Source: an uncultured Oscillospiraceae bacterium
Lineage (GTDB): Bacteria; Bacillota; Clostridia; Oscillospirales; Oscillospiraceae
Direction: 5' to 3'
Assembly: GCA_947629955.1 (NCBI GenBank)
Contig: CANRFT010000021.1
Location: forward strand, 1-35,722
Length of the DNA: 35,722 bases
Shown here: piece by piece, positions 15,513-35,641 of the stretch
Position numbering within the stretch: position 1 is the first letter of the stretch
Layout of the letters: each line of letters starts with the position of its first letter
Made by a program: the position numbers and the translations under genes
Notes under the pieces: generated by a model
Told to the model about the DNA's origin: nothing
The model's database searches: none
What the model saw: only the letters and a program-made list of their open reading frames with translations

Positions 15513-15533
15513 CAGGGGAATGCAAATAAGGCT

Positions 15534-17149: not shown

Positions 17150-17177
17150 CCCGTTCACGGAAGAAGCCCGTGCTTAC

Positions 17178-17192
17178 GGCCAATGTCATTAA
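17178..17192 (+). repeat. Short intergenic repeat, copy 2 (shortened)
   Basis: GGCCAATGTCATTAA matches the start of the repeat at 165-188 and, inverted, that at 18061-18081, but diverges after the TTAA. With the inverted copy downstream it brackets the AT-rich methyltransferase gene. Confidence 0.55.
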
Positions 17193-17294
17193 ATTTGTGA
17201 CTGCCAGTAGATTTTTCCATGGTTTTATGATATAGCATTTACGTTGACAGCAGGCCGACAGATCGGGTTTGTGCATAGGAATAAGAATGCAGAT

Positions 17295-17933: not shown

Positions 17934-18007
17934 ACAGCTTCCCGTTTGTGGGGCAAACGGAAAACAAGCGGACGATTATTGATGTAGAGCGACCTCTCTC
18001 CCACACC

Positions 18008-18047
18008 AAAAAGTACCCACCCTGGAAAACAGAGTGGGTACTTTTTT
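18008..18047. terminator. Bidirectional terminator between convergent genes
   Basis: AAAAAGTACCCAC (18008-18020) pairs with GTGGGTACTTTTTT (18034-18047). It serves the methyltransferase gene on plus and, with its poly-T on the other side, the glycan operon on minus. It is also the hairpin part of the recurring repeat unit. Confidence 0.88.
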
Positions 18048-18060
18048 ACATGTCGATTTG

Positions 18061-18081
18061 CTCAACTTAATGACATTTGGC
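18061..18081 (-). repeat. Short intergenic repeat, copy 3 (inverted)
   Basis: Read on the minus strand it is GCCAAATGTCATTAAGTTGA, one base longer than and otherwise nearly identical to copy 1, and it is followed by the hairpin with the TACCCAC arm at 18008-18047. It lies between the GH43 stop and the terminator. Confidence 0.6.
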
Positions 18082-18114
18082 TTGGGCCGCGGGCTTCCTG
18101 ATTCTCACAGTCGA

Positions 18115-19584: not shown

Positions 19585-19635
19585 ATCATTTCCTCCTCAG
19601 TGTTGTTTCCGCGCGGGGCGGTTTGACAGACGATG

Positions 19636-21423: not shown

Positions 21424-21506
21424 ATCCGCTCCCTCCCCGTTTGTTCAAGATGTGTACGCAAGCCCGCCGCATACAGAGATGCGGCGGGCTGCGCGGGTAC
21501 GGATCG

Positions 21507-21935
21507 TTACGCGGCCTCCTTGGTGATGTCGAAGAAGGAGGCGATGATGCTGATCAGCATGGCCACCACGCAGGCGGCGATGGCCACGATGCAGCTGGTG
21601 GTGTCGGCCATGTTGGCGGCGCTGTTCTCGAAGGTGAACACGGCGGCCAGGTTGGCGACGCGGGCGTTCAGCAGCATCACGGCGCCGGCCGTCAGCGCGA
21701 CGGCGCCCACCACGGGCAGGATGTCCCCGACGATGGAGGTCCCTTTGATGCCCAGGATGATGGTGAGCAGCTCGGCGACCACGCCGACGCACAGCAGGAC
21801 CATAACGGAGACGTCAACGCCCATCTTGGCGTAGTAATTGGTGCCGGTGTTGACGAGATAAGCGGCTACGCCCACCACGGCCGCGATGGCGGCCAGACAG
21901 GTGATGAACAGGCCGGCGGAAATCTTTCTTTTCAT
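21507..21935 (-). CDS. Small four-helix membrane protein
   Basis: A 142-residue protein made almost wholly of four hydrophobic helices (about 7-29, 40-63, 68-90, 112-135) with short polar loops and a basic start, MKRK. No known family motif is recognised. It lies between the lipoprotein and GH3 genes, 22 bases after the GH3 stop and preceded by GGGAGG. The close linkage to the membrane-tethered GH3 suggests it assists that enzyme or the lipoprotein at the membrane, but this rests on position alone. Confidence 0.8.
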   Translation of the reverse strand: MKRKISAGLFITCLAAIAAVVGVAAYLVNTGTNYYAKMGVDVSVMVLLCVGVVAELLTIILGIKGTSIVGDILPVVGAVALTAGAVMLLNARVANLAAVFTFENSAANMADTTSCIVAIAACVVAMLISIIASFFDITKEAA

Positions 21936-21957
21936 AATAGATACCTCCCTACCTTTC

Positions 21958-24900
21958 TCATGCGCTCTTCTTGCTGCGGGAGCGGAAGTACATGACAGCG
22001 GACAGCACCGTCAGCACCGCGAAGACGACCTCCACGGCGGTGAGGGCATTGTCGTACCAGGTGCGCACGCTCTCCACGCGGGTGTTGGAGGAGTAGCCGT
22101 CCATGGCGTTGGAGTTGGCCAGCGCATAGGCCTGCCACTTCATGGCCTGCTTCAAGGCGGCGGTCAGCTCGGGATCGTCCTGCACGTTGGCGACGGTCCA
22201 GTAGCTGTAGTAGCCGGAGACGGCGTCAATGGAGTTGTCGCCGGTGTTGCAGCTCATGGTCACGCCGTTCAGGACGGCCTCCTTCAGGGTCACGTAGCTG
22301 GGATCCATGATGAAGTCCTCGCTCATGAGGCCCTGGAAGCCCCACTCGCCGCGGACGATGTTCTTCAGCAGGGTGGGATGGGCGTTGTCGGTGTAGACGC
22401 CGACGCGGTTGTAGGCGGTCATGGCGCCCAGTGCCTTCGCGTCCTCGATGGAGGCCTGCATGGCGCGCAGCTCGCCCTCACGGGCCTTCTGCTCGGTCAT
22501 GAAGGTGGCCACGCCGGTGCGGTTGACCTCAGAGTCGTTGAAAGCGATGTGCTTGGGAGCGGCGATGACGCCGTACGCCTGCGCGCCCTTGATGGTGGCC
22601 GCGCCCTGGAAGGCGGAGAGGACGGCGTCCTCGGAGTAATACTCGTGGTTGCGGGCGTTATAAGGCACGCGGTGCAGGTTCACGCCGATGCCCCACCAGA
22701 TGGTCAGGTTGGACCACAGGGAGTAGTTGCCCATGACCTTGCCGTACTCCTCGGCCAGCCCCTTGTTGAAGGTCTGGGCCACGATGGTCTCGTTGCCCAT
22801 GACGCCGGCCATATACCCCGCATTGGGGTCATTGGAGTCGATGGCGCAGGGGTCGCCGGAGGACTTGTCGGTGTTGGCGTACTGGCTGAGAGGATAGGAG
22901 TAGATGCCGTTGGGGCCATCGTTCTGGATGGTCTCGGGGGACATGATGGACGGGATGGCCTTGGTGGAGGTGCCGCCGAAGCCGGTGCGGATCATGCACT
23001 CCTCCAGGGTGATCTGATCCATCAGCAGATCCCACGCGGGATCGCTCAGGTCAGAGATGCCCTTCAGGGAGGCCAGCGTCAGATCGTTCTCCGCGCCGAA
23101 CGTCACGTCGGAGCCGGTGGACTGCATCTGATAGTTGTCGTTCTTCATGACCGTGACCATCTCGTCGGTGGCGGTCAGGTTGGAATAGGTCTTGGGGAAG
23201 GTGCCCTCCCAGTCGGCGCGGGACAGATAAGTGACGGTGCCGGGCATCCAGTGGTTCAGGTCCATATCGGCCAGCTGGTTCTCCACGTTGGTGCCGTTCT
23301 TGGTGGCGGCGAAGGTGGAGGAATCCAGATCGGCCAGCTCCCAGGTCTGGACGTTGGCGGCGCTGCCGTCGGCGGTCATGCCGTTGGCGGTGGTGTAGCC
23401 CTGAGCGGCCAGGACGTTGTTGAGCGCCTCATGGGAGTTGCCCACGGAGAAGTAATAGGTGCCGGCGTCCAGAATGTAGTTGCCGGTGGTGCCCGCCGCA
23501 TTGGAGGCGGTGGAGTCCCAGGAGGCCATGTAGGTCAGGTCGGCGGTGATCTCCACGGTCTCGGAGGCGCCGGGGGCGATCTCGCCGGTCTTGGCGTAGT
23601 CCAGGAGCTGGATGCCGGCCTTCTCCACGCCGTGCTGCTTGTCATAATCGGTGTAGGGGACGGAGACATAGAGCTGGACCGCGTCCTTGCCGGCCACGCT
23701 GCCGGTGTTCTTCACGGTGACCTTGGCGGTGGCGGTCTTGGCGGCCAGGTCCACGGTCACGCTGTCCAGGGTCTGCTCGAAGGTGGTGTAGCTCAGGCCG
23801 TAGCCGAAGGGATAGGTCACCTCGTTGGCATAGGCCCAGGCGCCGCCGGTGCTGCCGGTGGCGGAGTTGGCGTTGCCCTGGCCCATGACGGTGTCGGCAT
23901 AGCGGGTCTCATAGTACTTGTAGCCGGTGTAGATGCCTTCGGCCTCCACGATGGCGCTGTTGATGTTGAGCTCAGGCTGGGCGTTGGCCCACATGAGGAA
24001 GCCGTAGTTCTGGGCGGCGGGGCTCAGCTCGTTGTCCACGGCGTAAGTGTCGCTGAGGCGGCCGGAGGGGTTCACGGTGCCATCCAGGATGTCGCACACG
24101 CCGTAGAAGCCGTAGCCGCCGGGCAGGCCGATCTGAAGCATGGCGTCGATGCCGTCGTTGTCGGCCAGCTCCTGGATCTCCATGGCGCTGGCGTTGTTCA
24201 GCAGCACGATGACCTTGCCGCCGTTGGAGGCCTTGGCGTCGATGGCGGCCTGGATCAGATCCCGCTCGTCATCGCTGAGACCCAGAGGATCGGTTTGGTT
24301 CAGATTCTGGGCGGGATCCACGCCGGCGGTGCCGGGGGTGTAGTTGGCGTTTTCGGAACCGGCCCGGGCGATGGTGACGATCATGACGTTGTAGTCGTTC
24401 ATGGAGTCCTTCCAGCCGGCGGAGGCGCCGTCCAGAGCGGACTGAGAGGGCTCCTTGCTGGTGAAGAAGCTGCCGTCGGAGTTGGCGGGGGCGGTGATGG
24501 TGTTATAGGTAATGGTGCCGCCCCAGCTGGCGACCTCGGTCACATAGGAGGACTCCAGGGAGGCGTACATGCTCTCCAGGGTGCTGTTGTAGCTGAAGCC
24601 CCGGGCCTTCAGCGCGCCCACGAAGTCCACCGTGTCGGCGTCAGTGCCGGAGTTGGGGGTCAGGCTGGAGCCCATGATACCGCCCATGACGGGGTGGTAG
24701 CTGGAGAAGCCCAGCAGGGAGATCTTGCCCTTCTCGTCGGCGCTCAGGGGCAGGGCGCCGTTATTCTTGAGCAGGACGGTGCCCTCCTCGCTCATGCGCT
24801 CGGCCACATCGGCGATGGCGTGGACCAGATCGGTGGTGCTGGTGTAGTCGGACGCGTAGGTATAGATCTCGCTGGGGTCCGCGTCCTCAGTAATGACCTT

Positions 24901-25047
24901 GGTGCTGGAGGTGCCGAGGAATTTGTCGATGTCAGTGCGGAATCCGTTGACGATGTTTGTGCCCACCAGAGCAAACGCGGTGACGCAGGCGCACAGGGTC
25001 GTCAGGCCGCGCCAAATTCTCTGGGAAGCACGGTTATTGCCTTTCAT
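21958..25047 (-). CDS. Circularly permuted GH3 glycoside hydrolase, membrane-tethered at both ends
   Basis: A 1029-residue beta-glycosidase whose GH3 domains are in swapped order. The GH3 C-terminal domain comes first (about 85-360: EEGTVLLKNNGALPL, LLGFSS, GLPGGYGFYGVCDILDGTVNPSGRLSDTY), then a fibronectin-III-like domain (about 430-545), then the (beta/alpha)8 domain (about 600-960) with KHIAFNDSEVNRTG and the nucleophile Asp911 in GLMSEDFIM. A hydrophobic helix at about 14-35 anchors the N-terminus, and another near the end (VEVVFAVLTVLSAVMYF, then RSRSKK) anchors the C-terminus, so the enzyme faces outside. Beta-glucosidase or beta-xylosidase activity is likely. GAGGAGGAAT precedes the start. 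Confidence 0.92.
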   Translation of the reverse strand: MKGNNRASQRIWRGLTTLCACVTAFALVGTNIVNGFRTDIDKFLGTSSTKVITEDADPSEIYTYASDYTSTTDLVHAIADVAERMSEEGTVLLKNNGALPLSADEKGKISLLGFSSYHPVMGGIMGSSLTPNSGTDADTVDFVGALKARGFSYNSTLESMYASLESSYVTEVASWGGTITYNTITAPANSDGSFFTSKEPSQSALDGASAGWKDSMNDYNVMIVTIARAGSENANYTPGTAGVDPAQNLNQTDPLGLSDDERDLIQAAIDAKASNGGKVIVLLNNASAMEIQELADNDGIDAMLQIGLPGGYGFYGVCDILDGTVNPSGRLSDTYAVDNELSPAAQNYGFLMWANAQPELNINSAIVEAEGIYTGYKYYETRYADTVMGQGNANSATGSTGGAWAYANEVTYPFGYGLSYTTFEQTLDSVTVDLAAKTATAKVTVKNTGSVAGKDAVQLYVSVPYTDYDKQHGVEKAGIQLLDYAKTGEIAPGASETVEITADLTYMASWDSTASNAAGTTGNYILDAGTYYFSVGNSHEALNNVLAAQGYTTANGMTADGSAANVQTWELADLDSSTFAATKNGTNVENQLADMDLNHWMPGTVTYLSRADWEGTFPKTYSNLTATDEMVTVMKNDNYQMQSTGSDVTFGAENDLTLASLKGISDLSDPAWDLLMDQITLEECMIRTGFGGTSTKAIPSIMSPETIQNDGPNGIYSYPLSQYANTDKSSGDPCAIDSNDPNAGYMAGVMGNETIVAQTFNKGLAEEYGKVMGNYSLWSNLTIWWGIGVNLHRVPYNARNHEYYSEDAVLSAFQGAATIKGAQAYGVIAAPKHIAFNDSEVNRTGVATFMTEQKAREGELRAMQASIEDAKALGAMTAYNRVGVYTDNAHPTLLKNIVRGEWGFQGLMSEDFIMDPSYVTLKEAVLNGVTMSCNTGDNSIDAVSGYYSYWTVANVQDDPELTAALKQAMKWQAYALANSNAMDGYSSNTRVESVRTWYDNALTAVEVVFAVLTVLSAVMYFRSRSKKSA

Positions 25048-25112
25048 AATATTCCTCCTCTTTCATTTATCGATCCGGAGCCGGCAGGGAGACCGGCTCA
25101 TGAATCACAAGG

Positions 25113-26573
25113 TTATTTTTTGCGCTCGGCAATGGCCTTCTGCTCGTCCTTCAGGTTCTTTTCCACCGTCCACAGGAGCATCAGAACGGCGCAGACGGCG
25201 TAGGCGACGGTCTCGATCCAGATGTAGCTGATGCCGATGGCCACCTGGGTGTTCACGTTCTGGACCATGCCGGCGGCGGCAGCGGCGTCCTCAGGGGGAG
25301 CCACATAGCCGGAGCCGTTCAGCAGGGCCATGAACACGGCGTTCATGATGGGAGTCGCCGCCACCATGACGGAGCTGTAGATAGACATGGTCAGGCCGTC
25401 AGTGCGGATGTTGTGCTTGTACTCGATGTGGTCGATGACGTCGGCCAGCATGGCCAGAATCAGATAGGCGGCCGGGGAGGAGCCCAGGCACTTCAGCGCT
25501 ACGCCGATGGCGGTGGGGACGATGGCGCCGTTGCCCAGGCCGGCGATCACGCCGCCGATGACGCCCAGGACCATGCCGGCGAAGACCACCATCCGCTTGC
25601 CGAACTTATTGGACAGCGGCACCACGAACACGGCGGCCACCGCCATGGGGATGGCGCCCAGCACGGCCAGGATGGTCTGCACGGTGCCCCAGCCGCCGGC
25701 GATGCCGGTGGAGTCCACCACCCACTGGCAGAAATAGCTCATGGAGCCGTTCTTGATGGCGCCGGAGCACTGGAAGAACAGGTAGAACAGGATCACGATC
25801 CACCACCACTTCTCGGTGGTGACGGCCTTCAGCTGGTCGCCGATGGAGGGGGCGCCGGGCTGCTGAACGTCGGCGGCGCTGTTCATGCTCTCCTCGGTGA
25901 CGCGCTCACGGGTGAACTGGAACTGGAGGAAGATGGTCAGGGCGGTGAAGATGGCTACGCCCACCATCACCAGGGTCCACATGGTCTGGCTGTTGCCCAG
26001 CACGTTGGCCACCAGGATGGGGAAGATCATGGAGCCCACGCCCATGACGCCCAGGCCGGCGATGTTGGTGAAGGAGGCCAGAGAGGCCCGCTGCCCGCTG
26101 TCCCGGGTGGAGACGGGGACCAGGGTGGAGTTGGCGGTGTTGTAGATGGGGTAGGCGATGGAATAGTACAGGTTGTAGGCGATGGCCACCCACACCATCT
26201 TCGCCACGCCCTCAAAGGGGACGATGAACATCAGCAGGCTGGCCACGGACAGGGTCAGGGCGGACAGCAGCACCCAGGGGCGGGCCTTGCCGGCCATGGT
26301 GCGGGTGCGCTCGATGAGCTGGCCCACGATCAGGTTGGCGGCCACGATGAAGACGGTGGACACCAGCTGCAGGCCGGACAGGAACGCGGTGTCCAGCTGC
26401 AGCACGTCGGTAAAATACTTGTTCAGGAAGCTGGTGAAGATGCCGGAGGACAGCAGTGCGCCGAAGGGGCCGATCAGGTAGCCGATCAGCATTTCCGGCA
26501 TGTGCACGTCCTGGGACTTGATCTTGGAGCTGAGCAGCGGATTGCCCCAGATCCCTTGCTTTTCTTTGCTCAT
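25113..26573 (-). CDS. GPH-family glycoside/sugar cation symporter
   Basis: A 486-residue transporter of the glycoside-pentoside-hexuronide family (MFS fold, about 12 helices). Family marks are FLNKYFTDVLQLDTAFLSGLQLV near the start, GQLIERTRTMAGKARPWVLLSA in the loop between helices 2 and 3, and LADVIDHIEYKHNIRTDGLTMSIYSS near the end. It probably imports a rhamnose- or glucose-containing oligosaccharide or glycoside with H+ or Na+ for the cytoplasmic GH78. It lies 62 bases after the rhamnosidase stop and 65 before the GH3 gene, all one strand, so one transcript is likely. Substrate is inferred from context only. Confidence 0.9.
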   Translation of the reverse strand: MSKEKQGIWGNPLLSSKIKSQDVHMPEMLIGYLIGPFGALLSSGIFTSFLNKYFTDVLQLDTAFLSGLQLVSTVFIVAANLIVGQLIERTRTMAGKARPWVLLSALTLSVASLLMFIVPFEGVAKMVWVAIAYNLYYSIAYPIYNTANSTLVPVSTRDSGQRASLASFTNIAGLGVMGVGSMIFPILVANVLGNSQTMWTLVMVGVAIFTALTIFLQFQFTRERVTEESMNSAADVQQPGAPSIGDQLKAVTTEKWWWIVILFYLFFQCSGAIKNGSMSYFCQWVVDSTGIAGGWGTVQTILAVLGAIPMAVAAVFVVPLSNKFGKRMVVFAGMVLGVIGGVIAGLGNGAIVPTAIGVALKCLGSSPAAYLILAMLADVIDHIEYKHNIRTDGLTMSIYSSVMVAATPIMNAVFMALLNGSGYVAPPEDAAAAAGMVQNVNTQVAIGISYIWIETVAYAVCAVLMLLWTVEKNLKDEQKAIAERKK

Positions 26574-26635
26574 GGGGATTCATCCTTTCTTGCGTTATTT
26601 TGATTCCCGAACCTCTCTCGAGAAAATCAACAAAA

Positions 26636-29197
26636 TCAAAGGGCGCAGGAGGCGGTGTGGACGCCGCTGGCCAGGTCCTGTTCAGAGCCGTCGGGCAGGG
26701 TCAGCCGGCAGCGGGTCCCCACGGGCACCCGGACGGTGACGGTGAAGGTCCCGCCCTCCGCTTTCCAGCCGGAGGACACCCGGCCGTAGGGGGTGTCCAC
26801 ATGGGCCTTGGCCCAGGTGAGACCGCCGCCCACCAGGGGCTTCACGGCAAAGGACTTATATCCGGGCTCCACGGCCTCGATGCCCGCCACCCGGCGGTAG
26901 AGGAAGTCGCCCACCGCGCCGCTGGCGTAGTGGTTGTAGGAGATCATCATGTCGGTGCCGTCGTCCCCGATGGGGCACACCCCGTTCTCGTCCAGGCCGT
27001 CCCAACGCTCCCAGATGGTGGTGGCCCCCACTTTGACCTCATACAGCCAGGAGGGGCATTCGGTGTTCAGCAGCATCCTGAACGCCGTGTCGGCGTGGCC
27101 ATTGTCGGCAAGGGCGAACAGGATGAAGGGGGTGCCGGGGAAGCCGGTGCCGATGCGGTACTCATTCTTCTCCACCAGCGCCGCCAGATTGTCCGCCGCC
27201 CTGGCCTTGACCTCCGGCGTGGGGAACATGTCCAGGTACAGGGGCAGCACATAGGCGGTCTGGAACTCGTCGCCCAGGAGTTTGCCGTTCCCGTCGGTGA
27301 GGACGGAGCAGTAGGCGTCGGCCACCTTTTCGCTCAGATCTTTGTAATGGGCGGCGTCGGCGGTCTCGCCCAGGATCTCCGCGATCCTGGCCACCAGGCC
27401 GCTGGTGTTTTTCAGACTGGCGGTGGCCGTCCATTTGGACCGGGCCTGCCACTGGCCCATCTGAGGCACATCGGGGGCCACCCAGTCGCCGAAGTGGAAC
27501 ACCGCCGGGGTGTGCCAGATGTACCTGTTCTTGCCGAAGCTCAGCAGCCCCGCCCAGAAGGTACACGCCTTCACGTACTTCTTCATCACGGGGTAGTTCC
27601 GGCGGAGGATCTCCACATCCCCTCTCGCCCGGTACTCCGCCCAGGGCACCAGGATACAGGCGTCGTCCCACCAGTCCACCGCCATGTCCGGCATGGTGGC
27701 GGGGAAGCCGTAGCTCTGCCGGGGCACCGTGTTGGGGATGCCGCCGCCGGGGAACTGCTCCGCCTTCACGTCCAGCAGCCACTTGTCCAGAAAGCGGCTC
27801 ATATCGAAGTTGAAGCAGGCGGTGGGGGAGAACACGGCGATATCGCCGGTCCAGCCCATGCGCTCGTCCCGCTGGGGGCAGTCGGTGGGGATGTCCATAA
27901 AGTTGGACTTGGCTCCCCAGACGATGTTGCTCTGGAGCCGGTTGAGCATCTCATTGGAACAGGCGAAATCGCCGATGCGCTCCATATCGGAGTACAGGGC
28001 CACGCCGGTGACCGACACGTTCTCTTTGGCGATCCCCTCCACGCTGATGTAGCGGAAGCCCATGTAGGTGAGCCGGGGGGCGTAGGTCTGTTCTCCGTCC
28101 GCACAGATATAGGTGGCTGTGGCCTTGGCGGTGCGGAGGAACAAGGTGTTCAGGGTGCCGTCGGGGTTCAGGATCTCCGCGTGCCTGACCACAACGGTCT
28201 GGCCCTTTTTCCCCTTCAGCTTCAGTTCCACCACGCCGGCAAAGTTTTGGCCAAAGTCATAGATTAGCGAGCCGTCGGGCCGTTCTGTGCAGGACACCGG
28301 CTCCAGCCGCTCGTGAGCCTTGACGGGGGCGCTGTAATCGGCCATGATCCTGGGATCGATCTTCAGCTTTTCGGGGGCGGCCGCGCCCCAGGAGGCGCTG
28401 CCGTAGCCTGCCTCCGTGGCGTCGTAGGTCTCGCCGTCGTAGAGGTCGGCCATCCTGTAGGGGCCGCCCTGGGTGACGGACCAGCTCTCGTCGGTGCCGA
28501 TGACCTCCTCCGTTCCGTCGGTGTAGGTGATGCGCAGCTCCAGCAGCAGGGCCTGCCGGTCGGCGGTGATGCGGTTGGCCCGGGTGAACACGAAGGAGCC
28601 CACCGCCCAGCCGCCGGCTACCACCACGTCGATGGTGTCGTCCCCGGTGAGCAGATCGGTGACATCGTAGGTCTGGTACTGTAGGTTGGCCTTATAGGAG
28701 GTGAAACCGGGGGCAAAATACCGGTCCCCTACCTTTTTTCCGTTGAGATCCAGCTCATAGATGCCCATGGCGGTGGCATAGACGCGGGCTTTTGCCACCG
28801 GCTTTTGCGTCTTGACGCTCCGGCGGAAGGTCATGGGCACGGGGCTGACCTTTTTCTCGGTGAACTGATAGCGGGGGTCGCTGATCCACTGCCCCGCCCA
28901 GGGGGTGTCCAGCCGCCCGGTCTCGAAGGAGACCTCCGCCTCCGCAGTCTCCCCGGCGTCGTCCTCCGCGGTGAGACGGGCGGTGTAGAACGTGAAGGGC
29001 TCCAGCGCCGGGCCGCCGTAGGGCACGGCGATCTGGGAGCCGGTCTCTGTCTGCCAGTTCCCCACCCGGAGCACGGCCTTTTTCAGCGTGACGTTCTCCC
29101 GGTCGCTGTCCACGGTGAAGGAAAAGCGGGGACGCTCCACATCGGTGACGCAGCCGGCCGACAGGTTTTCCACGGTGAATCGCGTGATCTTCAGCAT
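26636..29197 (-). CDS. Alpha-L-rhamnosidase (GH78)
   Basis: Cuts terminal alpha-L-rhamnose from glycosides. The 853-residue protein has N-terminal beta-sandwich domains (KITRFTVENLSAGCVTDVERPRFSF, a Fn3-like start typical of GH78), a middle beta domain with MGIYELDLNGKKVGD, and an (alpha/alpha)6 barrel with TDCPQRDERMGWTGD (catalytic acid Glu445) and IWERWDGLD (Glu730, candidate base). No signal peptide, so it acts in the cytoplasm on imported sugar. The frame is open to 29314, but the promoter -10 lies at 29253-29258, so the ATG at 29197, with GGAGGGGA upstream, is the true start. It leads the six-gene operon. Confidence 0.93.
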   Translation of the reverse strand: MLKITRFTVENLSAGCVTDVERPRFSFTVDSDRENVTLKKAVLRVGNWQTETGSQIAVPYGGPALEPFTFYTARLTAEDDAGETAEAEVSFETGRLDTPWAGQWISDPRYQFTEKKVSPVPMTFRRSVKTQKPVAKARVYATAMGIYELDLNGKKVGDRYFAPGFTSYKANLQYQTYDVTDLLTGDDTIDVVVAGGWAVGSFVFTRANRITADRQALLLELRITYTDGTEEVIGTDESWSVTQGGPYRMADLYDGETYDATEAGYGSASWGAAAPEKLKIDPRIMADYSAPVKAHERLEPVSCTERPDGSLIYDFGQNFAGVVELKLKGKKGQTVVVRHAEILNPDGTLNTLFLRTAKATATYICADGEQTYAPRLTYMGFRYISVEGIAKENVSVTGVALYSDMERIGDFACSNEMLNRLQSNIVWGAKSNFMDIPTDCPQRDERMGWTGDIAVFSPTACFNFDMSRFLDKWLLDVKAEQFPGGGIPNTVPRQSYGFPATMPDMAVDWWDDACILVPWAEYRARGDVEILRRNYPVMKKYVKACTFWAGLLSFGKNRYIWHTPAVFHFGDWVAPDVPQMGQWQARSKWTATASLKNTSGLVARIAEILGETADAAHYKDLSEKVADAYCSVLTDGNGKLLGDEFQTAYVLPLYLDMFPTPEVKARAADNLAALVEKNEYRIGTGFPGTPFILFALADNGHADTAFRMLLNTECPSWLYEVKVGATTIWERWDGLDENGVCPIGDDGTDMMISYNHYASGAVGDFLYRRVAGIEAVEPGYKSFAVKPLVGGGLTWAKAHVDTPYGRVSSGWKAEGGTFTVTVRVPVGTRCRLTLPDGSEQDLASGVHTASCAL

Positions 29198-29252
29198 GAC
29201 AATTCCCCTCCGTGTCCATAATTGTATGATTTCGAGGATGCAATTTGTGCAC

Positions 29253-29281
29253 ATTATAACAAGCCCGTTTTTGATTGTGAA
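29253..29281 (-). promoter_or_regulatory. Promoter of the GH78 operon
   Basis: Read on minus: TTCACA (29281-29276), 17 bases, TATAAT (29258-29253), preceded by TG for an extended -10. The start of transcription is expected near 29246, giving a leader of about 50 bases. Confidence 0.8.
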
Positions 29282-29295
29282 GATTCTCTGCGCAA

Positions 29296-29325
29296 TCCGT
29301 TGATTTTTCCGCACAATCCGTTAGG
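29296..29325 (-). promoter_or_regulatory. LytTR response-regulator double binding site
   Basis: TCCGTTGAT (29296-29304) and TCCGTTAGG (29317-29325) on the plus strand both fit the LytTR consensus [TA][AC][CA]GTTN[AG][TG]. They are separated by exactly 12 bases (21-base period, two helical turns). The pair is centred about 64 bases upstream of the predicted start of the GH78 operon, where AgrA/LytR-type activators bind. The likely binder is the LytTR regulator encoded 1.4 kb away. Confidence 0.78.
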
Positions 29326-29346
29326 GAAACTGTAAACTTTCCACAA

Positions 29347-29390
29347 GAAAAGCGCCCCGGAATTTGGCATTTTGCCAAACCGGGGCGCTG
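29347..29390 (-). terminator. Terminator of the kinase/regulator operon
   Basis: AGCGCCCCGG (29351-29360) pairs with CCGGGGCGCT (29380-29389), with an inner GGC/GCC pair; on minus it is followed by TTTCTT. It separates the sensor kinase gene from the GH78 promoter region. Confidence 0.85.
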
Positions 29391-29403
29391 GAACGGATTT
29401 GAT

Positions 29404-30723
29404 TTACCGGGCGGCGGGGCGGGGGATGAGCACTCCCAGCACAAACCAGCCGTTTTCCGCCTTGAGGGTCATGGAGCCGCCGTATTTCTCCGCGGTGGCC
29501 CGGATGGACTTGAGGCCGTAGCCATGCCGGCCCTTATCCTTCTTGGTGGTCCGGGGCAGCTCGTTGTCCACCGTCAGGCCGTCCACGCAGCGGTTTTCCA
29601 CCCGGATGCGCAGGAAGCCCTTCTGCTGGCTCACCGAAAGGTGGATCAGCCGCTGATCCGGGTCCGGCAGGCAGCTCACGCCCTCGATGGCGTTGTCCAG
29701 CAGATTCCCGAACAGGGCGCTCAGGTCCACCGCGCTCATAAAGCCCAGGGCGGAGCCGTCCGCCACACTGGTCAGGGTGATGCCGTGATCCAGACACCAG
29801 GCGCTCTTTTGGGTCAGGATGGCGTCCAGCACCTTGTTCCCCGTCTGGTTCTGCGCCTCGTAGGTCCGGATGCCCTGTTCGATCTGATCCAGGCTGTCCA
29901 GCTTCTGCTCCGTGCCGATCTCCGCCCGGAGCATGGCGATCTGGTGCTTCAGGTCGTGATAGGTCCGGTTCACCCGGTCGATGGAGTCCTGGCTCTGCTG
30001 GTAGTTGGCGTACTGCATATCCAACACGTTCTGCAGGGCGCTCACCTCGTGGAGGGCATAGGAATCACACAGCTGAAGATGGTAGGCGAACAGGATGGCC
30101 ACCCCTCCCAGATAGACGATGGTGCGGATGTTGAAGGCCTCCGCCTCGATGTTGGTGGTGAAGGGGGACTCCAGAGAGGAGTAGCTGAGGCTGCTGAGGA
30201 TGTAGATGATGAGGGCGATGAGCACCGCCCCCAGGCAGGAGGGCCGGGAGGGGGCCAGCTCCTGCATTTCCCGGCGGTGGACCCGCTCCAGGAGGTACAT
30301 CCCCAGGTACACCGCCCCGCCCAACAGAAGGAGGAAGGCCGCCTCCGCCCACAGCGGCCTGAGCCAGTCAAGGCGCTGGCTGTAGTAGCTGTACAGCTGC
30401 CAGGCCAGCGACACCGTGAAGCCGCCCAGTATGAAAGCGCGGGCGCAGTAATACACGTGATGGGATATGTCCCCTTTGCAGAGGAGCAGGAAGGGCAGCA
30501 GGGTCAGCGCCGCGAATCCCGTCATGCCCAGGTTGAACGGGGCGCCGTCCAGCGGTGCGATGAGGGACATATAGGGGATCATCACCGCCAGCAGGACCGC
30601 GCCCGCGATCCCGCACTGCCACAGGGGCCTTCGCCGGGGCAGCAGGGTCAGATACACCAGGCAGGCCAGCCAATGGAATACCGCCGTCCACAGGGCGGGA
30701 ACATTCTGCAGTTCGCTGCTCAT
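29404..30723 (-). CDS. Sensor histidine kinase, AgrC-like (GHKL ATPase)
   Basis: A 439-residue kinase of the HPK10/AgrC type. The N-terminal half (about 1-220) holds six or more membrane helices and no extracellular domain. A dimerisation/phosphorylation segment has His256 in NRTYHDLKHQ. The C-terminal GHKL ATPase shows the N box NLLDNAIEG and the G box GHGYGLKSI. Its ATG at 30723 overlaps the regulator's TGA (ATGA), so the pair is coupled. No agrB/agrD peptide genes are nearby, so the ligand is unknown; a peptide, a sugar or an envelope cue are all possible. A longer frame to 30744 is rejected because of the overlap and lack of a ribosome site. Confidence 0.9.
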   Translation of the reverse strand: MSSELQNVPALWTAVFHWLACLVYLTLLPRRRPLWQCGIAGAVLLAVMIPYMSLIAPLDGAPFNLGMTGFAALTLLPFLLLCKGDISHHVYYCARAFILGGFTVSLAWQLYSYYSQRLDWLRPLWAEAAFLLLLGGAVYLGMYLLERVHRREMQELAPSRPSCLGAVLIALIIYILSSLSYSSLESPFTTNIEAEAFNIRTIVYLGGVAILFAYHLQLCDSYALHEVSALQNVLDMQYANYQQSQDSIDRVNRTYHDLKHQIAMLRAEIGTEQKLDSLDQIEQGIRTYEAQNQTGNKVLDAILTQKSAWCLDHGITLTSVADGSALGFMSAVDLSALFGNLLDNAIEGVSCLPDPDQRLIHLSVSQQKGFLRIRVENRCVDGLTVDNELPRTTKKDKGRHGYGLKSIRATAEKYGGSMTLKAENGWFVLGVLIPRPAAR

Positions 30724-31430
30724 TGGCCGACCTCGTTGACGCACCGGTTCAGGGCGTTCAGAAACGCCTTTTTCTTGGACCGGCTCACCTGGACCCGCGT
30801 GCCGTGGACGACGGCGTCCTCTCCGGAAAAGCCGTCCACATGCTCCAGATTCACCAGGTAGCCCTTGTTGCAGCGGAAGAAGGGCATGCCCGCCAGGCTC
30901 TCCTCCACGTCCCGCATGCTGCCGGCGGCGGACAGGTCGCCGTCCGCCGTGTGGTAGATCAGGTTGTGCCCGTCGATCTCGATATAGTAGATGCGGGAGC
31001 AGTCCACCTTGCTGGTGCCGTTTTTGTGGTTGACGACCAGATAGCGGCGGCGGTGCCGCTCCAGCCGCTCCAGCGCCCGGCGGAGGCTCTGGGAGAACGC
31101 AAAATAGGACACCGGCTTCAGGATGTAGTCCAGCGCGTCCACCGCGTAGCCCCGGATGGCGTAGGAGGCCAGGTTGGTGATGAACAGGATGACCACGCCG
31201 GCGTCCACCTTCCGGATCTCCTCGGCGGCGGTCATGCCGTCCACATATTTCATCTGGATATCCATGAGGATCACGTCGAACTCAGGCCGGTAGTCGCGGA
31301 CGATGTCCTCTCCGTCCTTAAAGACCCGGACGGAAAACTCATGGCCGGTTTCCCTGGAATACTGGTCCAGATACTCTCTCAGCTGCCCGCGGCAGATGGC
31401 ATCATCCTCCACCAAAGCGATGCGTGTCAT
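30720..31430 (-). CDS. LytTR-family response regulator
   Basis: A 236-residue regulator with a receiver domain (about 1-120; acidic pocket VEDD near residue 8, phospho-acceptor Asp57 in VILMDIQM) and a C-terminal LytTR DNA-binding domain (about 135-235; KNGTSKVDCSRIYYIEIDGHNLIYHT, FFRCNKGYLVNLEHV). It is first in a two-gene operon with the kinase. The double LytTR site at 29296-29325 ahead of the GH78 gene is its most probable target. GGGAGGGAAAGGCCT precedes the ATG at 31430. No LytTR site is seen in its own upstream region, so autoregulation through this motif is not supported. Confidence 0.93.
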   Translation of the reverse strand: MTRIALVEDDAICRGQLREYLDQYSRETGHEFSVRVFKDGEDIVRDYRPEFDVILMDIQMKYVDGMTAAEEIRKVDAGVVILFITNLASYAIRGYAVDALDYILKPVSYFAFSQSLRRALERLERHRRRYLVVNHKNGTSKVDCSRIYYIEIDGHNLIYHTADGDLSAAGSMRDVEESLAGMPFFRCNKGYLVNLEHVDGFSGEDAVVHGTRVQVSRSKKKAFLNALNRCVNEVGQ

Positions 31431-31570
31431 AGGCCTTTCCCTCCCGAACGCGATCTCAAAACCAGATCAGAACTGTACCCCACGGCGATGGAACTTCATA
31501 AAAAGCTGTACCCTGCCAAGAATAATACACATCTATCTATTATCATTTTACAGTTTTGCCCCGCAAATAC

Positions 31571-31589
31571 AACAACAAAATTTGTTGTT
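31571..31589. promoter_or_regulatory. Perfect 19-base palindrome in the divergent intergenic region
   Basis: AACAACAAA-A-TTTGTTGTT: two 9-base arms with perfect symmetry around a single base, in AT-rich DNA between the divergent regulator and AraC genes. It overlaps the likely -35 area of the minus-strand operon. An operator for an unidentified dimeric repressor is plausible. Confidence 0.5.
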
Positions 31590-31591
31590 TT

Positions 31592-31607
31592 ATATATCCG
31601 ATTTTGT
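31592..31607 (-). promoter_or_regulatory. Putative AraC-regulator box, copy upstream of the kinase/regulator operon
   Basis: On minus it reads ACAAAATCGGATATAT, identical over 16 bases to 32679-32694 ahead of rhaB. It points toward the response-regulator gene. See the finding on the shared box. Confidence 0.6.
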
Positions 31608-31615
31608 GATTTTTC

Positions 31616-31645
31616 TTGACAGACCGGCCCCCTTTGCGATAGCAT
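31616..31645 (+). promoter_or_regulatory. Possible promoter of the AraC-family gene
   Basis: TTGACA (31616-31621), 18 bases, TAGCAT (31640-31645). The implied start of transcription falls at the ribosome site GGAGG (31651-31655), leaving almost no leader, so the assignment is only moderate. Confidence 0.45.
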
Positions 31646-31663
31646 GGAGCGGAGGTGTTCTCT

Positions 31664-32632
31664 GTGCGGGAAAACATTGTCCGGCGGCTTGCCGAAGTCA
31701 CGGAGGAGGAACAGCGCATCCTGCGGGGCGAACCCATAGATATGTCCTATTACAACCGGACCGGGGACGCGGTGATGGACCCCTCTCGCATCCTGCCGGG
31801 GAGCAGACTGTTCGGCATCCGCACCCATACCCGCTTTGCCGACTTTCCCCGCCACAGCCACAGCTATGTGGAGATGATCTACCAGGTCCGGGGCTCCACC
31901 TCCCACGTCATTGACGGGAAAGAGCCCCTCACCTTGAGGGCGGGCAGCCTGCTGCTGCTGGGCCGGAGCACGGAGCATGAGATCAGGGCCGCCGGGCGGG
32001 ACGATATCGCCGTCAACTTCATCCTGGTGCCCGCCTTTTTCGACAACGCCGCCATCAGCATCGGCGGCAGCAGCGCCCTGTCCGTCTTTTTGCAGAACAA
32101 CCTGCGCCGGGAGGCCCCCGTGCGCTCCCATCTGGTTTATGACGTGTCCGGCGAGACCGCGCTGGAGAACCTGCTGGAAAACCTGGTGCTGCTGGAGCTG
32201 GAGGGCGCCCCGCTCCAGCGGCAGGATCTTCAGCAGAGGACCCTGGAGCTGCTGTTCCACCATCTGTCCGGCCAGTCCGCCAAGCTGGTGGTCCGGGGGA
32301 AGCGGGAGCGGGAGCAGGCCGTGGTGCTCTCCGCCTTGTCCCGCATCGAGTCCGATGTGCAGTGTACCCTCTCCGCCCTGGCGGAGGAAAACGGCATGGA
32401 GATTTCCTCCCTCAGCCGCCTGATCCGCCGGCATACGGGCTGCACCTTTACCGAACTGCTCCACACGGCCCGGTTCAACCGGGCGGTGGCCCTGCTGGCG
32501 GACACGGACCTGAGCGTGGCCGATATCGCCATCGCCGTGGGGTATGAGAATACCGCCTTTTTCTATCGTAATTTCGCCAGACGCTTTGGCTGTACCCCGG
32601 CGGAATACCGCGCCGCCCACCGCCGCGCATGA
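31664..32632 (+). CDS. AraC-family transcriptional regulator
   Basis: A 322-residue activator with an N-terminal cupin-like sugar-binding domain (about 45-150: RHSHSYVEMIYQVRGSTSHVIDGKEPLTLRAGSLLLLG) and a C-terminal pair of helix-turn-helix motifs (about 220-320), with the family signature LSVADIAIAVGYENTAFFYRNFARRFGCTPAEYR. The GTG at 31664 sits 8 bases after GGAGG; GTG 31655 overlaps this site and is less likely. Given the position next to rhaB and the isomerase gene, it probably senses L-rhamnose or a related sugar, like RhaS/RhaR. A 16-base box repeated before rhaB and before the LytTR operon is its likely target. A terminator follows. Confidence 0.92.
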   Translation: MRENIVRRLAEVTEEEQRILRGEPIDMSYYNRTGDAVMDPSRILPGSRLFGIRTHTRFADFPRHSHSYVEMIYQVRGSTSHVIDGKEPLTLRAGSLLLLGRSTEHEIRAAGRDDIAVNFILVPAFFDNAAISIGGSSALSVFLQNNLRREAPVRSHLVYDVSGETALENLLENLVLLELEGAPLQRQDLQQRTLELLFHHLSGQSAKLVVRGKREREQAVVLSALSRIESDVQCTLSALAEENGMEISSLSRLIRRHTGCTFTELLHTARFNRAVALLADTDLSVADIAIAVGYENTAFFYRNFARRFGCTPAEYRAAHRRA

Positions 32633-32636
32633 GCGC

Positions 32637-32670
32637 CGCCCCAGCCTTCGGGCCGGGGCGTTTTGCTTTT
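32637..32670 (+). terminator. Intrinsic terminator after the AraC gene
   Basis: CGCCCCAGCC (32637-32646) pairs with GGCCGGGGCG (32651-32660) around a stable TTCG tetraloop, with one A-C mismatch, followed by TTTTGCTTTT. Confidence 0.88.
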
Positions 32671-32678
32671 CTGAGAAT

Positions 32679-32694
32679 ACAAAATCGGATATAT
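32679..32694 (+). promoter_or_regulatory. Putative AraC-regulator box upstream of rhaB
   Basis: ACAAAATCGGATATAT, 18 bases before the rhaB -35. The same 16 bases occur inverted at 31592-31607. Place and spacing fit an AraC-type activator touching polymerase at the -35. Confidence 0.62.
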
Positions 32695-32712
32695 CAAAAG
32701 CAAGGTCCGTCC

Positions 32713-32740
32713 TTGTTTTTTCCATTCGGGGGCGTACAAT
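32713..32740 (+). promoter_or_regulatory. Promoter of rhaB and the isomerase gene
   Basis: A weak -35 TTGTTT (32713-32718), 16 bases, and TACAAT (32735-32740). The poor -35 is consistent with activator dependence. An ATG at 32739 falls inside the -10, so it is not the start codon. Confidence 0.6.
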
Positions 32741-32777: not shown

Positions 32778-34226
32778 GTGAAGTATTATCTCGCCGTCGA
32801 CATCGGCGCGTCCTCCGGCAGGCACATCCTGGGCCATGTGGAGGACGGGAAGATCGTACTGGAGGAGGTCCACCGGTTCGACAACAAGCAGGTCCATGTG
32901 AACGGCCACGACTGCTGGGACATGGACAACCTGTGGACCGGCATCGTGGACGGTTTGCGCGCCTGCAAGGCCATGAGAAAGATCCCCGACACCGTGGGCA
33001 TCGACACCTGGGCGGTGGACTATGTGCTGCTGGATGGAGACGGCAGGCAGATCGGCGACGCGGTGGCCTATCGGGACGGTCGCACCGCCGGCATGGACGC
33101 CGTGGTGGACGCCATCGTGCCCCGGAGCGAGCTGTACGCCAAGACCGGCATCCAGTACCAGACCTTCAACACAATCTATCAGCTCATGGCCCTGAAGCGG
33201 GAGCATCCTGAGCAGTTAGAGGCGGCTTCGTCCCTGCTGATGATCCCGGACTACTTCAACTACCGGCTCACCGGGGTGAAAAAGCAGGAGTACACCAACG
33301 CCACCTCCACCAGCCTGGTGAACGCGGCGGACAAGTCCTGGGACATGGACCTGATCCGGCGGCTGAGCCTGCCGGAAAAGCTGTTCGGCGAGCTGTCCAT
33401 GCCGGGGACGGTGGTCGGGAAGCTGACCCCAGAGATGCAGGCGGAGGTGGGCTTCAACGCCACGGTGATCCTCCCCGCCACCCACGACACCGGCTCCGCC
33501 TTCCTGGCCGTCCCCGCCCGGGACGACAAGGCGGTTTTCCTCTCCAGCGGCACATGGAGCCTCCTGGGGGTGGAGAACGAGGCCCCCATCACCACCGAGG
33601 AGAGCCGGGAGGAAAACTTCACCAACGAGGGCGGGGCGTGGTCCCGCTACCGCTACCTCAAGAACATCATGGGGCTTTGGATGATCCAGTCCATCCGCCG
33701 GGAGCTGAACGGCGTGGCCTATGTGGAGGGAAAGACCAGCAAGTACGCCTCCGGCCGCACCTATTCCTTCCCCGACCTCATCGCCGAGGCCAAGGGTGCG
33801 GCGGACTTCCCCTCCATGGTGGACGCCAACGACGACTGCTTCCTGGCCCCGGACAGCATGATCGACGCCATCAAGGACTTCTGCGCCAAGTCCGGCCGGC
33901 CGGTGCCCCAGACGGTGGGGGAGATCATGCAGACGGTCTATTCCTCCCTTGCCATGGCCTACGAGAACGGAATCGCCGCCCTGGAGGACATGACCGGGAA
34001 GCATTACACCAGTTTGAACATCGTGGGCGGCGGGTGCCAGGATATGTACCTGAACCAGATGACCGCCAATGCCACCGGCCTGCCCGTGTTCGCCGGCCCG
34101 GTGGAGGGCACCGCCATCGGCAACCTGATCGTCCAGATGATCGCCGGGGGCGAGTTCGACAGTCTGCAATCGGCCAGAGACGCCGTGAAAAACAGCTTTG
34201 ACATCAAGGAGGTAACGCCATGTTAG
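32778..34226 (+). CDS. rhaB: L-rhamnulose kinase
   Basis: Phosphorylates L-rhamnulose at O-1 in rhamnose breakdown. It is a FGGY-family sugar kinase of 482 residues from the GTG at 32778 (ribosome site GAGGAGGGA). Motifs: YLAVDIGASSGRHILG (phosphate 1), GIDTWAVDYVLLD, AYRDGRT, LLMIPDYFNYRLTG, THDTGSAFLAVP, FLSSGTWSLLG (adenosine region), and NIVGGGCQDMYLNQMTANATGLPVFAGPVEGTAIGN near the C-terminus, which is diagnostic for RhaB. The frame is open upstream to 32544, but the promoter lies inside that stretch. It overlaps the isomerase gene by 7 bases. The third pathway enzyme, an aldolase, is not in the window and may follow downstream. Confidence 0.95.
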   Translation: MKYYLAVDIGASSGRHILGHVEDGKIVLEEVHRFDNKQVHVNGHDCWDMDNLWTGIVDGLRACKAMRKIPDTVGIDTWAVDYVLLDGDGRQIGDAVAYRDGRTAGMDAVVDAIVPRSELYAKTGIQYQTFNTIYQLMALKREHPEQLEAASSLLMIPDYFNYRLTGVKKQEYTNATSTSLVNAADKSWDMDLIRRLSLPEKLFGELSMPGTVVGKLTPEMQAEVGFNATVILPATHDTGSAFLAVPARDDKAVFLSSGTWSLLGVENEAPITTEESREENFTNEGGAWSRYRYLKNIMGLWMIQSIRRELNGVAYVEGKTSKYASGRTYSFPDLIAEAKGAADFPSMVDANDDCFLAPDSMIDAIKDFCAKSGRPVPQTVGEIMQTVYSSLAMAYENGIAALEDMTGKHYTSLNIVGGGCQDMYLNQMTANATGLPVFAGPVEGTAIGNLIVQMIAGGEFDSLQSARDAVKNSFDIKEVTPC

Positions 34227-35641
34227 TGGAAACCAAAGCCCGTGTGGGCGTGTTCGCCATCGCTCTGGGGGCCTATCTGCCCCAGTTCCCCTCCCTGGTC
34301 CCCGAGTTCGAGGGCCAGTACGCCGATTTCAAGAAACGCATCCCCAACACGGTGGAGCTCATCGACGGCGGCATCGTCACCACCAAGGAGCTGGCCCAGG
34401 CCGCCGGAGACAAGTTCCGCTCCGCCGACGTGGACCTGGTCATCCTCCAGCTGCTGACCTACGCCACCTCCTACAATATGCTCCCCGCCGTCCGGGACCT
34501 GGACGTGCCGGTGGTGCTGGTGAACCTCCAGAAGAAAAAGGCACCCGACTACGAGCACACCGACACGGCGACCTGGCTGGGCGAGCTGTACGCCTGCGGC
34601 GCCGTGGGCGAGATGGTGGCCGACCTGGAGCGGGCCGGCAAGCGCCACGCGGTCATCACCGGCGTCGTCGAGGGGGGCGACCCCCACGCCCAGGCGGAGA
34701 TCGAGGACTGGTGCCGGGCCGCCCAGGTCCGCCGCCGCTTCCGCGACACCAACCTGGCCCAGATCGGCCGGCCCTACCCCGGCATGATGGACCTGTACAT
34801 CGACGAGACCAACCTCTACCACCGGATGTGGCTCTACACCAAGCAGTTCGACTGGGAGAAGATGTGGGCCATCGCCGACGACATCACCGACGAGGACGCC
34901 ATCCGGGCCAAGGCCCAGGACATCCTGGACACCTTCGATATCGAGGGCGGCGGCACCGTCGAGAAGGTCTGGGATATGGCAAAATACGTCGTGGCCTTCG
35001 AGCGGTGGGTGAGGGAGGAGAAGCTGGGCTTCGTGGCCTCCCACTACGACGGCTTCGCCCAGGGGGTGGCCGGCAAGCTGGATAGTATGCTCATCCCCGC
35101 CTTCTCCATGCTCATCAAGCAGGGCACCGCCTGCGCCGTGGAGGGGGACATCAAGGTGGCCATGGCCATGAGCATCCTCAAGACCATCTCCGGCACCGGC
35201 CAGCTCTCCGAGATGTACTCCATCGACTTTGAGAAGGACATCTGCATCATCGGCCACAGCGGCTCCGGCGACGCGGACATCTCCCAGGCGAAGAAGCCCA
35301 CCATGAAGATCGTCCCCGTGTTCCACGGCAAGACCGGCGGCGGGTATCTGACCCAGTTCTATCCCCCGGTGGGCCCCGTCACCTATCTGGGCATCACCCA
35401 GGACCGGGACGGTCACTTCAAGTTCGTGGTGGCCGAGGGCGTGAATGAGGAGGGGCCCATCTTCACCTTCGGGGACACCAATATGCGCACCCGGTTCACC
35501 TGCGGGGCCCGGGAGTTCTGCGACAGGTGGAGCGAGGCCGGCCCCACCCACCACATGGCCGCCGCCGCGGGCCGCCACATCGACACCATCCTGAAAGTGG
35601 CAAAGATATTCAACGTACCTGTGGACATCATTACCCGATAA
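34220..35641 (+). CDS. L-fucose/L-arabinose isomerase-fold protein, candidate rhamnose isomerase
   Basis: A 473-residue ketol isomerase-like protein of the AraA/FucI superfamily. The N-terminal domain is a Rossmann-like fold (VGVFAIALGAYLPQFPSL, DLVILQLLTYATSYNMLP). Candidate metal ligands line up with those of AraA (E306, E333, H350, H450): Glu308 in AVEGDIKVAM, Glu338 in SIDFEKD, His346 in IIGHSGSG and His444/His445 in THHMAAAAGRH. AAGGAGGTAACGCC precedes the ATG at 34220, which lies inside the end of rhaB, so the two are coupled. No classical RhaA or RhaI is present, so this protein may convert L-rhamnose to L-rhamnulose. The family is clear; the sugar is inferred from context. Confidence 0.85.
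   Translation: MLVETKARVGVFAIALGAYLPQFPSLVPEFEGQYADFKKRIPNTVELIDGGIVTTKELAQAAGDKFRSADVDLVILQLLTYATSYNMLPAVRDLDVPVVLVNLQKKKAPDYEHTDTATWLGELYACGAVGEMVADLERAGKRHAVITGVVEGGDPHAQAEIEDWCRAAQVRRRFRDTNLAQIGRPYPGMMDLYIDETNLYHRMWLYTKQFDWEKMWAIADDITDEDAIRAKAQDILDTFDIEGGGTVEKVWDMAKYVVAFERWVREEKLGFVASHYDGFAQGVAGKLDSMLIPAFSMLIKQGTACAVEGDIKVAMAMSILKTISGTGQLSEMYSIDFEKDICIIGHSGSGDADISQAKKPTMKIVPVFHGKTGGGYLTQFYPPVGPVTYLGITQDRDGHFKFVVAEGVNEEGPIFTFGDTNMRTRFTCGAREFCDRWSEAGPTHHMAAAAGRHIDTILKVAKIFNVPVDIITR

What the first reader, a model, noticed from the sequence alone, without database searches (positions are those of the whole stretch)
29246..32740. Two-layer control of a rhamnoside system: AraC box shared by rhaB and a LytTR two-component operon
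The 16-base ACAAAATCGGATATAT is found twice, at 32679-32694 (18 bases before the rhaB -35) and inverted at 31592-31607, facing the LytTR regulator/kinase operon at a similar distance from its likely promoter. An AraC-family gene lies between the two boxes. The LytTR pair in turn has a matching site at the GH78 operon. This predicts a cascade: a sugar-sensing AraC protein switches on both catabolism and a membrane signalling pair, which then switches on import and glycan cleavage. I know of no described rhamnose circuit with this layout.
Basis: partly seen in the sequence, partly recalled or inferred. Interest (0 to 1): 0.75.

Follow-up and report, generated by a model that had tools for sequence, protein, structure and literature searches.

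The report
Sugar regulator feeding a two-component system
In a bacterium related to gut Oscillospiraceae, a protein that probably senses the plant sugar rhamnose has DNA docking sites both at its sugar-breakdown genes and at a membrane signalling pair whose own likely docking site lies at the genes that cut and import rhamnose-containing compounds, a two-step layout also seen in three related species.

Summary
In detail: the exact 16-mer occurs twice in the window and nowhere else in the 2.2 Mb genome. It is the first half of a two-half AraC-type operator, found without mismatch (RCAAAATCGGATAYA) in all 15 examined genomes whose AraC is 60% or more identical. The cascade is supported in part of the group. 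The LytTR/GHKL pair heads a GH78/MFS block; 11 of 11 genomes with the block or a variant carry a 21-bp-period direct repeat, the form LytTR regulators bind, before the next gene. An AraC-type operator sits at the LytTR promoter in the window and in three other species of the genus, where araC is not beside LytTR (22.5, 28.2, 30.3 bits with a rhaB-promoter profile; 26 other LytTR promoters at most 13.6). Seven of the 11 lack it, two of them despite an AraC-type site at rhaB, so this layer is not universal. A roughly 16-kb inversion relative to sister genome G401 ends in the araC-LytTR intergenic. Parts are known kinds; I did not find the wiring described. Binding, sign and ligand are inferred.

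The parts
31592..31607 (-). AraC box A: half-site 1 of the operator facing the LytTR/GHKL operon; also 8 bp from a candidate araC -35
   Evidence: exact 16-mer; 27.1 bits, second of 71,354 window positions; TGTCAA flank as in all 13 divergent araC-kinase rows (11 distinct loci)
31545..31591 (-). LytTR promoter: weak half-site 2 (22 bp period), TTGTAT -35 (31567-31572), TAAAAT -10 (31545-31550)
   Evidence: sequence; half-site 2 only 5.6 bits; core promoter aligns with G285
32679..32694 (+). AraC box B: half-site 1 of the rhaB operator
   Evidence: 33.8 bits, best of 71,354 positions; conserved in relatives
32695..32740 (+). half-site 2 (GCAAGGTCCGTCCTTG, 21 bp period) and rhaB promoter TTGTTT-16-TACAAT
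   Evidence: sequence; operator rows
31664..32632 (+). AraC-family regulator (cupin + HTH_18); start GTG 31664 chosen by comparison with G401
   Evidence: relatives 60-92%
30720..31430 (-). LytTR response regulator
   Evidence: PF00072 + PF04397
29404..30726 (-). GHKL sensor kinase with six TM-like N-terminal segments; range is the frame searched, start near 30723
   Evidence: PF14501; hydropathy
29290..29322 (-). candidate LytTR site: direct repeat AACGGATTG-N12-AACGGATTG, 11 bp before the GH78 -35 (29276-29281; -10 29253-29258)
   Evidence: only copy in the genome at up to 3 mismatches; repeat in 11 of 11 genomes with the block or a variant
26636..29197 (-). GH78 alpha-L-rhamnosidase
   Evidence: PF17389, PF05592
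25113..26573 (-). GPH/MFS symporter, end of the four-gene block
   Evidence: PF13347; synteny
32778..34226 (+). rhaB, L-rhamnulokinase
   Evidence: TIGR02627 557.8 bits, cut-off 527.95
34220..35641 (+). fucose/arabinose-isomerase-like protein; candidate rhamnose isomerase
   Evidence: PF02952 and PF11762, both below their cut-offs; neighbours of rhaB 78-98% identical in many loci
15522..15531 (+). GCAAATAAGG, family AraC half-site 1 at the other end of the inverted block; possible relic
   Evidence: 13.3 bits for half 1, only copy in the window on either strand; not among the top two-half hits

Best explanation
A two-layer circuit for rhamnoside use. (1) An AraC/XylS-family regulator, probably responding to rhamnose or an early catabolite in the cytoplasm (inferred), binds a two-half direct-repeat operator (21-22 bp period) whose second half abuts the -35, and activates the rhaB-isomerase operon (operator shown by conservation; activation inferred from position). 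(2) In part of this genus the same kind of protein binds an equivalent operator at the LytTR/GHKL operon and raises the amount of that pair (operator shown by comparison in four species; effect inferred). (3) The GHKL kinase, with about six membrane segments, phosphorylates the LytTR regulator on an unknown cue (inferred). The regulator binds AACGGATTG-N12-AACGGATTG just upstream of the GH78 -35 and switches on the alpha-rhamnosidase and symporter genes (site shown by conservation; binding inferred). Net effect: cytosolic sugar licenses a membrane sensor, which then controls cleavage and import.
For: RCAAAATCGGATAYA without mismatch in 15 of 15 distinct genomes examined with AraC at 60% or more (21 handles, 4 of them duplicates; the other two, G285 and G140 with AraC at 38% and 43%, have none). 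Profile from 14 operators of other genomes: window rhaB 33.8 and LytTR 27.1, next 5.9; G401's 33-kb contig rhaB 39.0 and LytTR 18.2, next 11.1; simulated background reaches 27.1 in 0 and 18.2 in 7 of 19.8 million positions. Second profile from 52 rhaB promoters beside AraC homologs of 34-41% (two of the 52 are G442's own rhaB promoters, none is a LytTR promoter): LytTR promoters G442 30.3, G441 28.2, G401 22.5; 26 other LytTR promoters at most 13.6; background 1 in 19.9 million at 22.5 or more; each is the best site of the stretch scanned. Block: LytTR-GHKL-GH78-MFS in 8 genomes, without GH78 in 2, and with extra DNA and a 35% MFS in G033; direct repeat in 11 of 11, at 0-6 mismatches. At up to 3 mismatches it occurs once in each of 4 of the 5 genomes searched whole, and not in G400, which lacks an ortholog of the pair; reversed-pattern controls 0. 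A related pair outside any block (G377:C62) has no repeat at up to 7 mismatches.
Against: No expression or binding data. AraC operator at LytTR in only 4 of 11 block genomes, all in the window's genus (4 of 7 there); G285, G435, G377, G399, G313, G240 and G033 lack it. G033 has a 61% AraC and an exact box at rhaB, and G240 a 36% AraC with a weak rhaB site (16.0), yet their LytTR promoters score -5.4 and 6.8. In the window the second half-site at LytTR is weak (5.6 bits), the family profile gives it only 5.4, and that profile's best window hit is a site of 14.5 inside the LytTR ORF, above rhaB at 10.7. Under the first profile G442 scores 4.2, below one control at 9.0. G401's 18.2 is below a 20.2 site elsewhere in the window's genome that overlaps an ORF start (L004). 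Box A shares its intergenic with araC and may serve araC. The closest AraC relative, G400 (92%), has no ortholog of the pair (best kinase 46%).
Confidence: 0.66

Rival explanations
1. Box A is only the araC autoregulatory or ancestral araC-rhaB operator; the LytTR pair sits there by an inversion and is not controlled by AraC.
For: Box A keeps the TGTCAA flank of ortholog loci, i.e. araC's candidate -35. The LytTR core promoter aligns with G285's, which lacks the box. The araC-LytTR junction is an inversion end. Seven of 11 block genomes have no AraC operator at LytTR.
Against: LytTR promoters away from araC in G401, G441 and G442 carry their own two-half operators. Box A is identical to box B over 16 bases, including an A at position 1 not seen in the operators of relatives at 60% or more. 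Orientation and -35 spacing suit LytTR.
Confidence: 0.21
2. The two layers are parallel, not serial: AraC and the LytTR pair are independent regulators of neighbouring rhamnose genes with different cues.
For: The LytTR block exists without the AraC operator in seven genomes, so it can work alone.
Against: AraC-type operators at LytTR in four species of the genus.
Confidence: 0.1
3. AraC represses LytTR, so the pair is made mainly when rhamnose is absent or low.
For: Not excluded by sequence; in G313 and G240 a lone half-site-like stretch lies near the likely transcription start of LytTR.
Against: In the four genomes with a full operator it lies just upstream of the likely -35, as at rhaB, an activator position.
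Confidence: 0.03

Closest known systems
E. coli RhaR to RhaS rhamnose cascade (PMC3870299, passages read)
   Same: Two regulatory layers for L-rhamnose with AraC-family activators
   Different: The second layer in E. coli is another AraC protein; here it is a membrane kinase with a LytTR regulator aimed at GH78 and a symporter
AraC-family rhamnose regulators of Bacillales, Bacteroides and Enterococcus with direct-repeat motifs (PMC3870299, section 14 read)
   Different: Those motifs are called unique and the section names no two-component target; the logos were not available to me for comparison
AgrC/AgrA-type GHKL-LytTR pairs and LytTR regulatory systems (PMC4227749, PMC6193735, passages read)
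   Same: Direct repeats, mostly 12 bp apart in the LytTR regulatory systems, just upstream of a promoter; a LytTR-domain regulator
   Different: Linked to a rhamnosidase and symporter, not quorum sensing or bacteriocins; no copy of the site found at its own operon; in four species placed under an AraC-type operator

Membership tests
RhaS/RhaR (E. coli-type) regulators | NCBIfam equivalog score above cut-off | tested here: not met
   RhaS model 57.1 bits against cut-off 288; three RhaR models 38-52 against 363-525
AraC-family rhamnose regulators (broad) | AraC HTH plus cupin-like ligand domain | tested here: met
   PF12833, PF00165, PF02311
AraC-family rhamnose regulators (broad) | neighbour of rhaB with a direct-repeat operator of about 21-bp period | tested here: met
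   ortholog and family operators; periodicity as in PMC3870299
AraC-family rhamnose regulators (broad) | responds to L-rhamnose | not testable with these tools
   ligand inferred from neighbours
GHKL/LytTR two-component pair (AgrC/AgrA-like) | receiver + LytTR regulator beside a GHKL kinase with polytopic N-terminus | tested here: met
   PF00072, PF04397, PF14501; six TM-like segments
GHKL/LytTR two-component pair (AgrC/AgrA-like) | target site of direct repeats with 12-bp gap just upstream of the -35 | tested here: met
   AACGGATTG-N12-AACGGATTG, 11 bp before the GH78 -35; repeat in 11 of 11 block genomes; form as in PMC6193735
GHKL/LytTR two-component pair (AgrC/AgrA-like) | cognate signal peptide gene | not tested
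   no search for small peptide genes was made

The most novel reading that the evidence does not exclude
AraC operators marked both ends of the rhamnoside block, and a roughly 16-kb inversion with its ends in or beside them rejoined araC's half-site to the LytTR promoter's half-site, leaving a stray GCAAATAAGG half-site at the other end. Regulation would have been kept while gene order flipped. If such inversions recur, the operator pair acts as a promoter-swap device that decides which operon faces the sugar sensor.
Probability: 0.25. Interest if true: 0.65.

Novelty: new variant of a known kind. Interest (0 to 1): 0.5.

Why it matters
LytTR regulators of this kind are common in the family (43 of 400 genomes have a match at E 1e-40 or better, many with several); from memory, few have an assigned cue or target. 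This case gives one a candidate target site, target genes and, in part of the genus, an upstream regulator, so its signal becomes testable. It would also be a case of a cytosolic sugar regulator setting the level of a membrane sensing system, a possible AND gate for rhamnosides.

Tried and rejected
A third AraC target in the genome: the 2-mismatch site on contig C12 lies inside an ORF without a second half-site, and L004 (20.2 bits) overlaps an ORF start; both taken as chance. Loci were held for only 8 of the 15 genome hits, two of them the boxes; the other 7 were not examined. Autoregulation by the LytTR regulator: no repeat copy among the best hits at its promoter; the window's second hit (24915, 21.6 bits) is inside the GH3-like ORF 21958-25047. 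That profile includes the window's own site, so its score there is not independent. G406's extra exact box lies inside a recombinase-like ORF (the label is my reading of the translation). That LytTR relatives in general carry the box: of 29 non-own LytTR loci scanned over at most 300 bp upstream, G285 included, none had fewer than 4 mismatches to the 16-mer. For the profile test 26 of these served as comparison (G285 and G399 were test genomes, L135 had too little upstream); three of the 26 (G313, G240, G033) proved to be block members when I fetched their neighbourhoods while checking this report; the neighbourhoods of most of the rest were not examined. A 1-bp longer half-site spacing at LytTR looked odd at first, but 22 is the commonest spacing in the family operators (44 of 52). 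A structure prediction was not run because domain hits were clear.
Full report
Observation. The 16-mer is present exactly twice, inverted, at the stated places, and shuffles do not reproduce that. In the whole 2.2 Mb genome (98.5% complete) there are no other exact copies. The window is the whole contig C21. Gene identities were confirmed with Pfam and NCBIfam: AraC with a cupin domain, LytTR response regulator, GHKL kinase, rhamnulokinase, GH78 and a GPH symporter. The gene after rhaB is a fucose/arabinose-isomerase-like protein; no rhamnose isomerase model was among its hits.

What the box is. AraC homologs were collected by the genome search (22 of 300 family genomes at E 1e-40 or better) and from GTDB contigs (best 80 of 157 relatives kept). 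In relatives at 60% or more the box reads GCAAAATCGGATAYA and lies between araC and an FGGY kinase gene similar to rhaB, or in front of rhaB. All 15 distinct genomes examined with such an AraC have a copy without mismatch; in two of them (G408 = G033, G410 = G186) it is before rhaB on a contig other than araC's. The rows show a second half about 21 bp on, ending in a TTG that starts the likely -35. More distant AraC homologs (34-41%) beside rhaB share a related operator, GCAAATAAGGACAC followed by a second half 21-22 bp on (52 promoters scoring 12.3 to 39.8, a few with a weak half such as L019 and L021). PMC3870299 (section 14 read) reports direct repeats with 21-bp periodicity for AraC-type rhamnose regulators of other groups, so this is a known kind of operator.

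Box A and LytTR. A profile from 14 operators, excluding the window's genome and G401, puts rhaB (33.8) and the LytTR promoter (27.1) far above the rest of the window (5.9). Box A also lies next to a candidate araC -35, and its flank is that of the ortholog operators, so from the window alone it could be an araC element. In G401, the genome of L034 (AraC 84%), LytTR is about 15 kb from araC, yet its promoter carries an operator (18.2; next best in 33 kb 11.1). A second profile, trained on the 52 distant rhaB promoters (two of them G442's), scores the LytTR promoters of G442 (30.3), G441 (28.2) and G401 (22.5), against at most 13.6 in 26 other LytTR promoters, 0.6 in G285, and negative values in G399, G435 and G377. 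Simulated background reaches 22.5 once in 19.9 million positions. The window scores only 5.4 under this second profile, whose best window hit (14.5) is inside the LytTR ORF; its first half is derived. Under the first profile the best of the 26 is 9.0, G441 11.4 and G442 4.2.

How general it is. Eleven genomes carry the block or a variant: LytTR-GHKL-GH78-MFS in the window, G285, G401, G399, G442, G441, G313 and G240; LytTR-GHKL-MFS in G435 and G377 (contig C64); and in G033 the pair, about 2.6 kb of other DNA, GH78 and a 35% MFS. The AraC operator is at LytTR in four: the window, G401, G441 and G442, all of the window's genus. Those four also have an AraC operator at rhaB. The other seven lack it at LytTR. 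Of these, G399, G435 and G377 have no AraC homolog at E 1e-30 or better (G399's best is 3.0e-30) and G285 has a 38% one while its rhaB promoter keeps only the second half. G240 (AraC 36%, rhaB site 16.0) and G033 (AraC 61%, exact box at rhaB) are real exceptions; G313 was not tested for AraC. Within the genus, AraC relatives of 80% or more are in 3 of 42 genomes (the window's, G400 = G436, G401 = G438); two of these three have the pair and both have the operator. So layer two looks like a feature of part of this genus.

LytTR to GH78. All 11 have a direct repeat of 21-bp period after the kinase gene and before the next gene of the block (in G033, before the extra DNA): 0 mismatches in the window, 1 in G285, 3 in G401, G399, G377, G313 and G240, 4 in G442 and G435, 6 in G441 and G033, of 24 set bases. 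At up to 3 mismatches it is found exactly once in each of four genomes searched whole (G000, G285, G399, G401), not in G400, and never with the reversed control pattern. At up to 7 the reversed pattern gives 0 in the seven fetched block stretches, while the forward pattern gives one extra hit in G240, overlapping the site, and one in G033. The G377:C62 pair, which has no GH78 or MFS match in the 20 kb fetched around it, has none at up to 7. Repeats mostly 12 bp apart just upstream of a -35 are the reported form of LytTR sites (PMC6193735, passages). No such repeat is among the best hits at the LytTR promoter itself.

Rearrangement. The window's 15584-31445 is inverted relative to G401 11523-26446. 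In G401 araC's divergent neighbour is the second GH78-like gene, with a lone half-site facing it (22.3 bits, no second half); another lone half-site (18.1) lies behind the kinase gene. In G285 the gene matching window 11256-12536 lies near LytTR, which suggests that the window is the inverted one. At the other end of the block the window carries GCAAATAAGG, a family half-site, 52 bp before the second GH78-like gene. That the ends coincide with AraC operators is suggestive only.

Literature. Searches combining rhamnose, AraC, two-component, LytTR, rhamnosidase and related words (one search listed 15 of 28) listed no paper whose title or abstract start describes such a circuit. Only open PMC papers are held, and I read passages or a section of PMC3870299, PMC4227749, PMC6193735 and PMC6222199 only. 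The E. coli RhaR-RhaS cascade is the nearest precedent (PMC3870299, passages).

Verdict. The lower layer (LytTR to GH78/symporter) is well supported across 11 genomes; the upper layer (AraC to LytTR) is supported by comparison in four species and absent in seven. Parts are of known kinds, wired in a way I did not find described. Binding, sign of regulation, ligand and kinase cue remain inferred.

Noticed in passing
window 15584-31445: About 16-kb block inverted relative to sister genome G401:C15; one end lies in the araC-LytTR intergenic.
   Followed up: partly
window 34220-35641: Isomerase-like protein beside rhaB, 78-98% identical in the rhaB-linked copies seen (L105 has a further 29% copy), no PDB sequence match at E 0.01 and only sub-threshold family hits; it may be an uncharacterised type of L-rhamnose isomerase.
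   Followed up: partly
L034 5100-5660: In G401 a 5' rhaB fragment and a small ORF that looks like L-rhamnose mutarotase (label from memory, not searched) lie between the AraC operator and intact rhaB.
   Followed up: no
52 loci, e.g. L018, L076, L228: A widespread clostridial AraC-rhaB pairing with operator GCAAATAAGGACAC plus a second half 21-22 bp on, usable for regulon prediction.
   Followed up: partly
L237, L238: Related LytTR pairs (G435, G377) with AACGGATTCCG repeats before the MFS gene and no GH78 between: a possible change of target or sugar.
   Followed up: no
L116, L117 upstream of LytTR: In G313 and G240 a half-site-like AAAATAGGACAYAT with no second half lies just after the likely -10 of the LytTR promoter, where a repressor might sit.
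   Followed up: no
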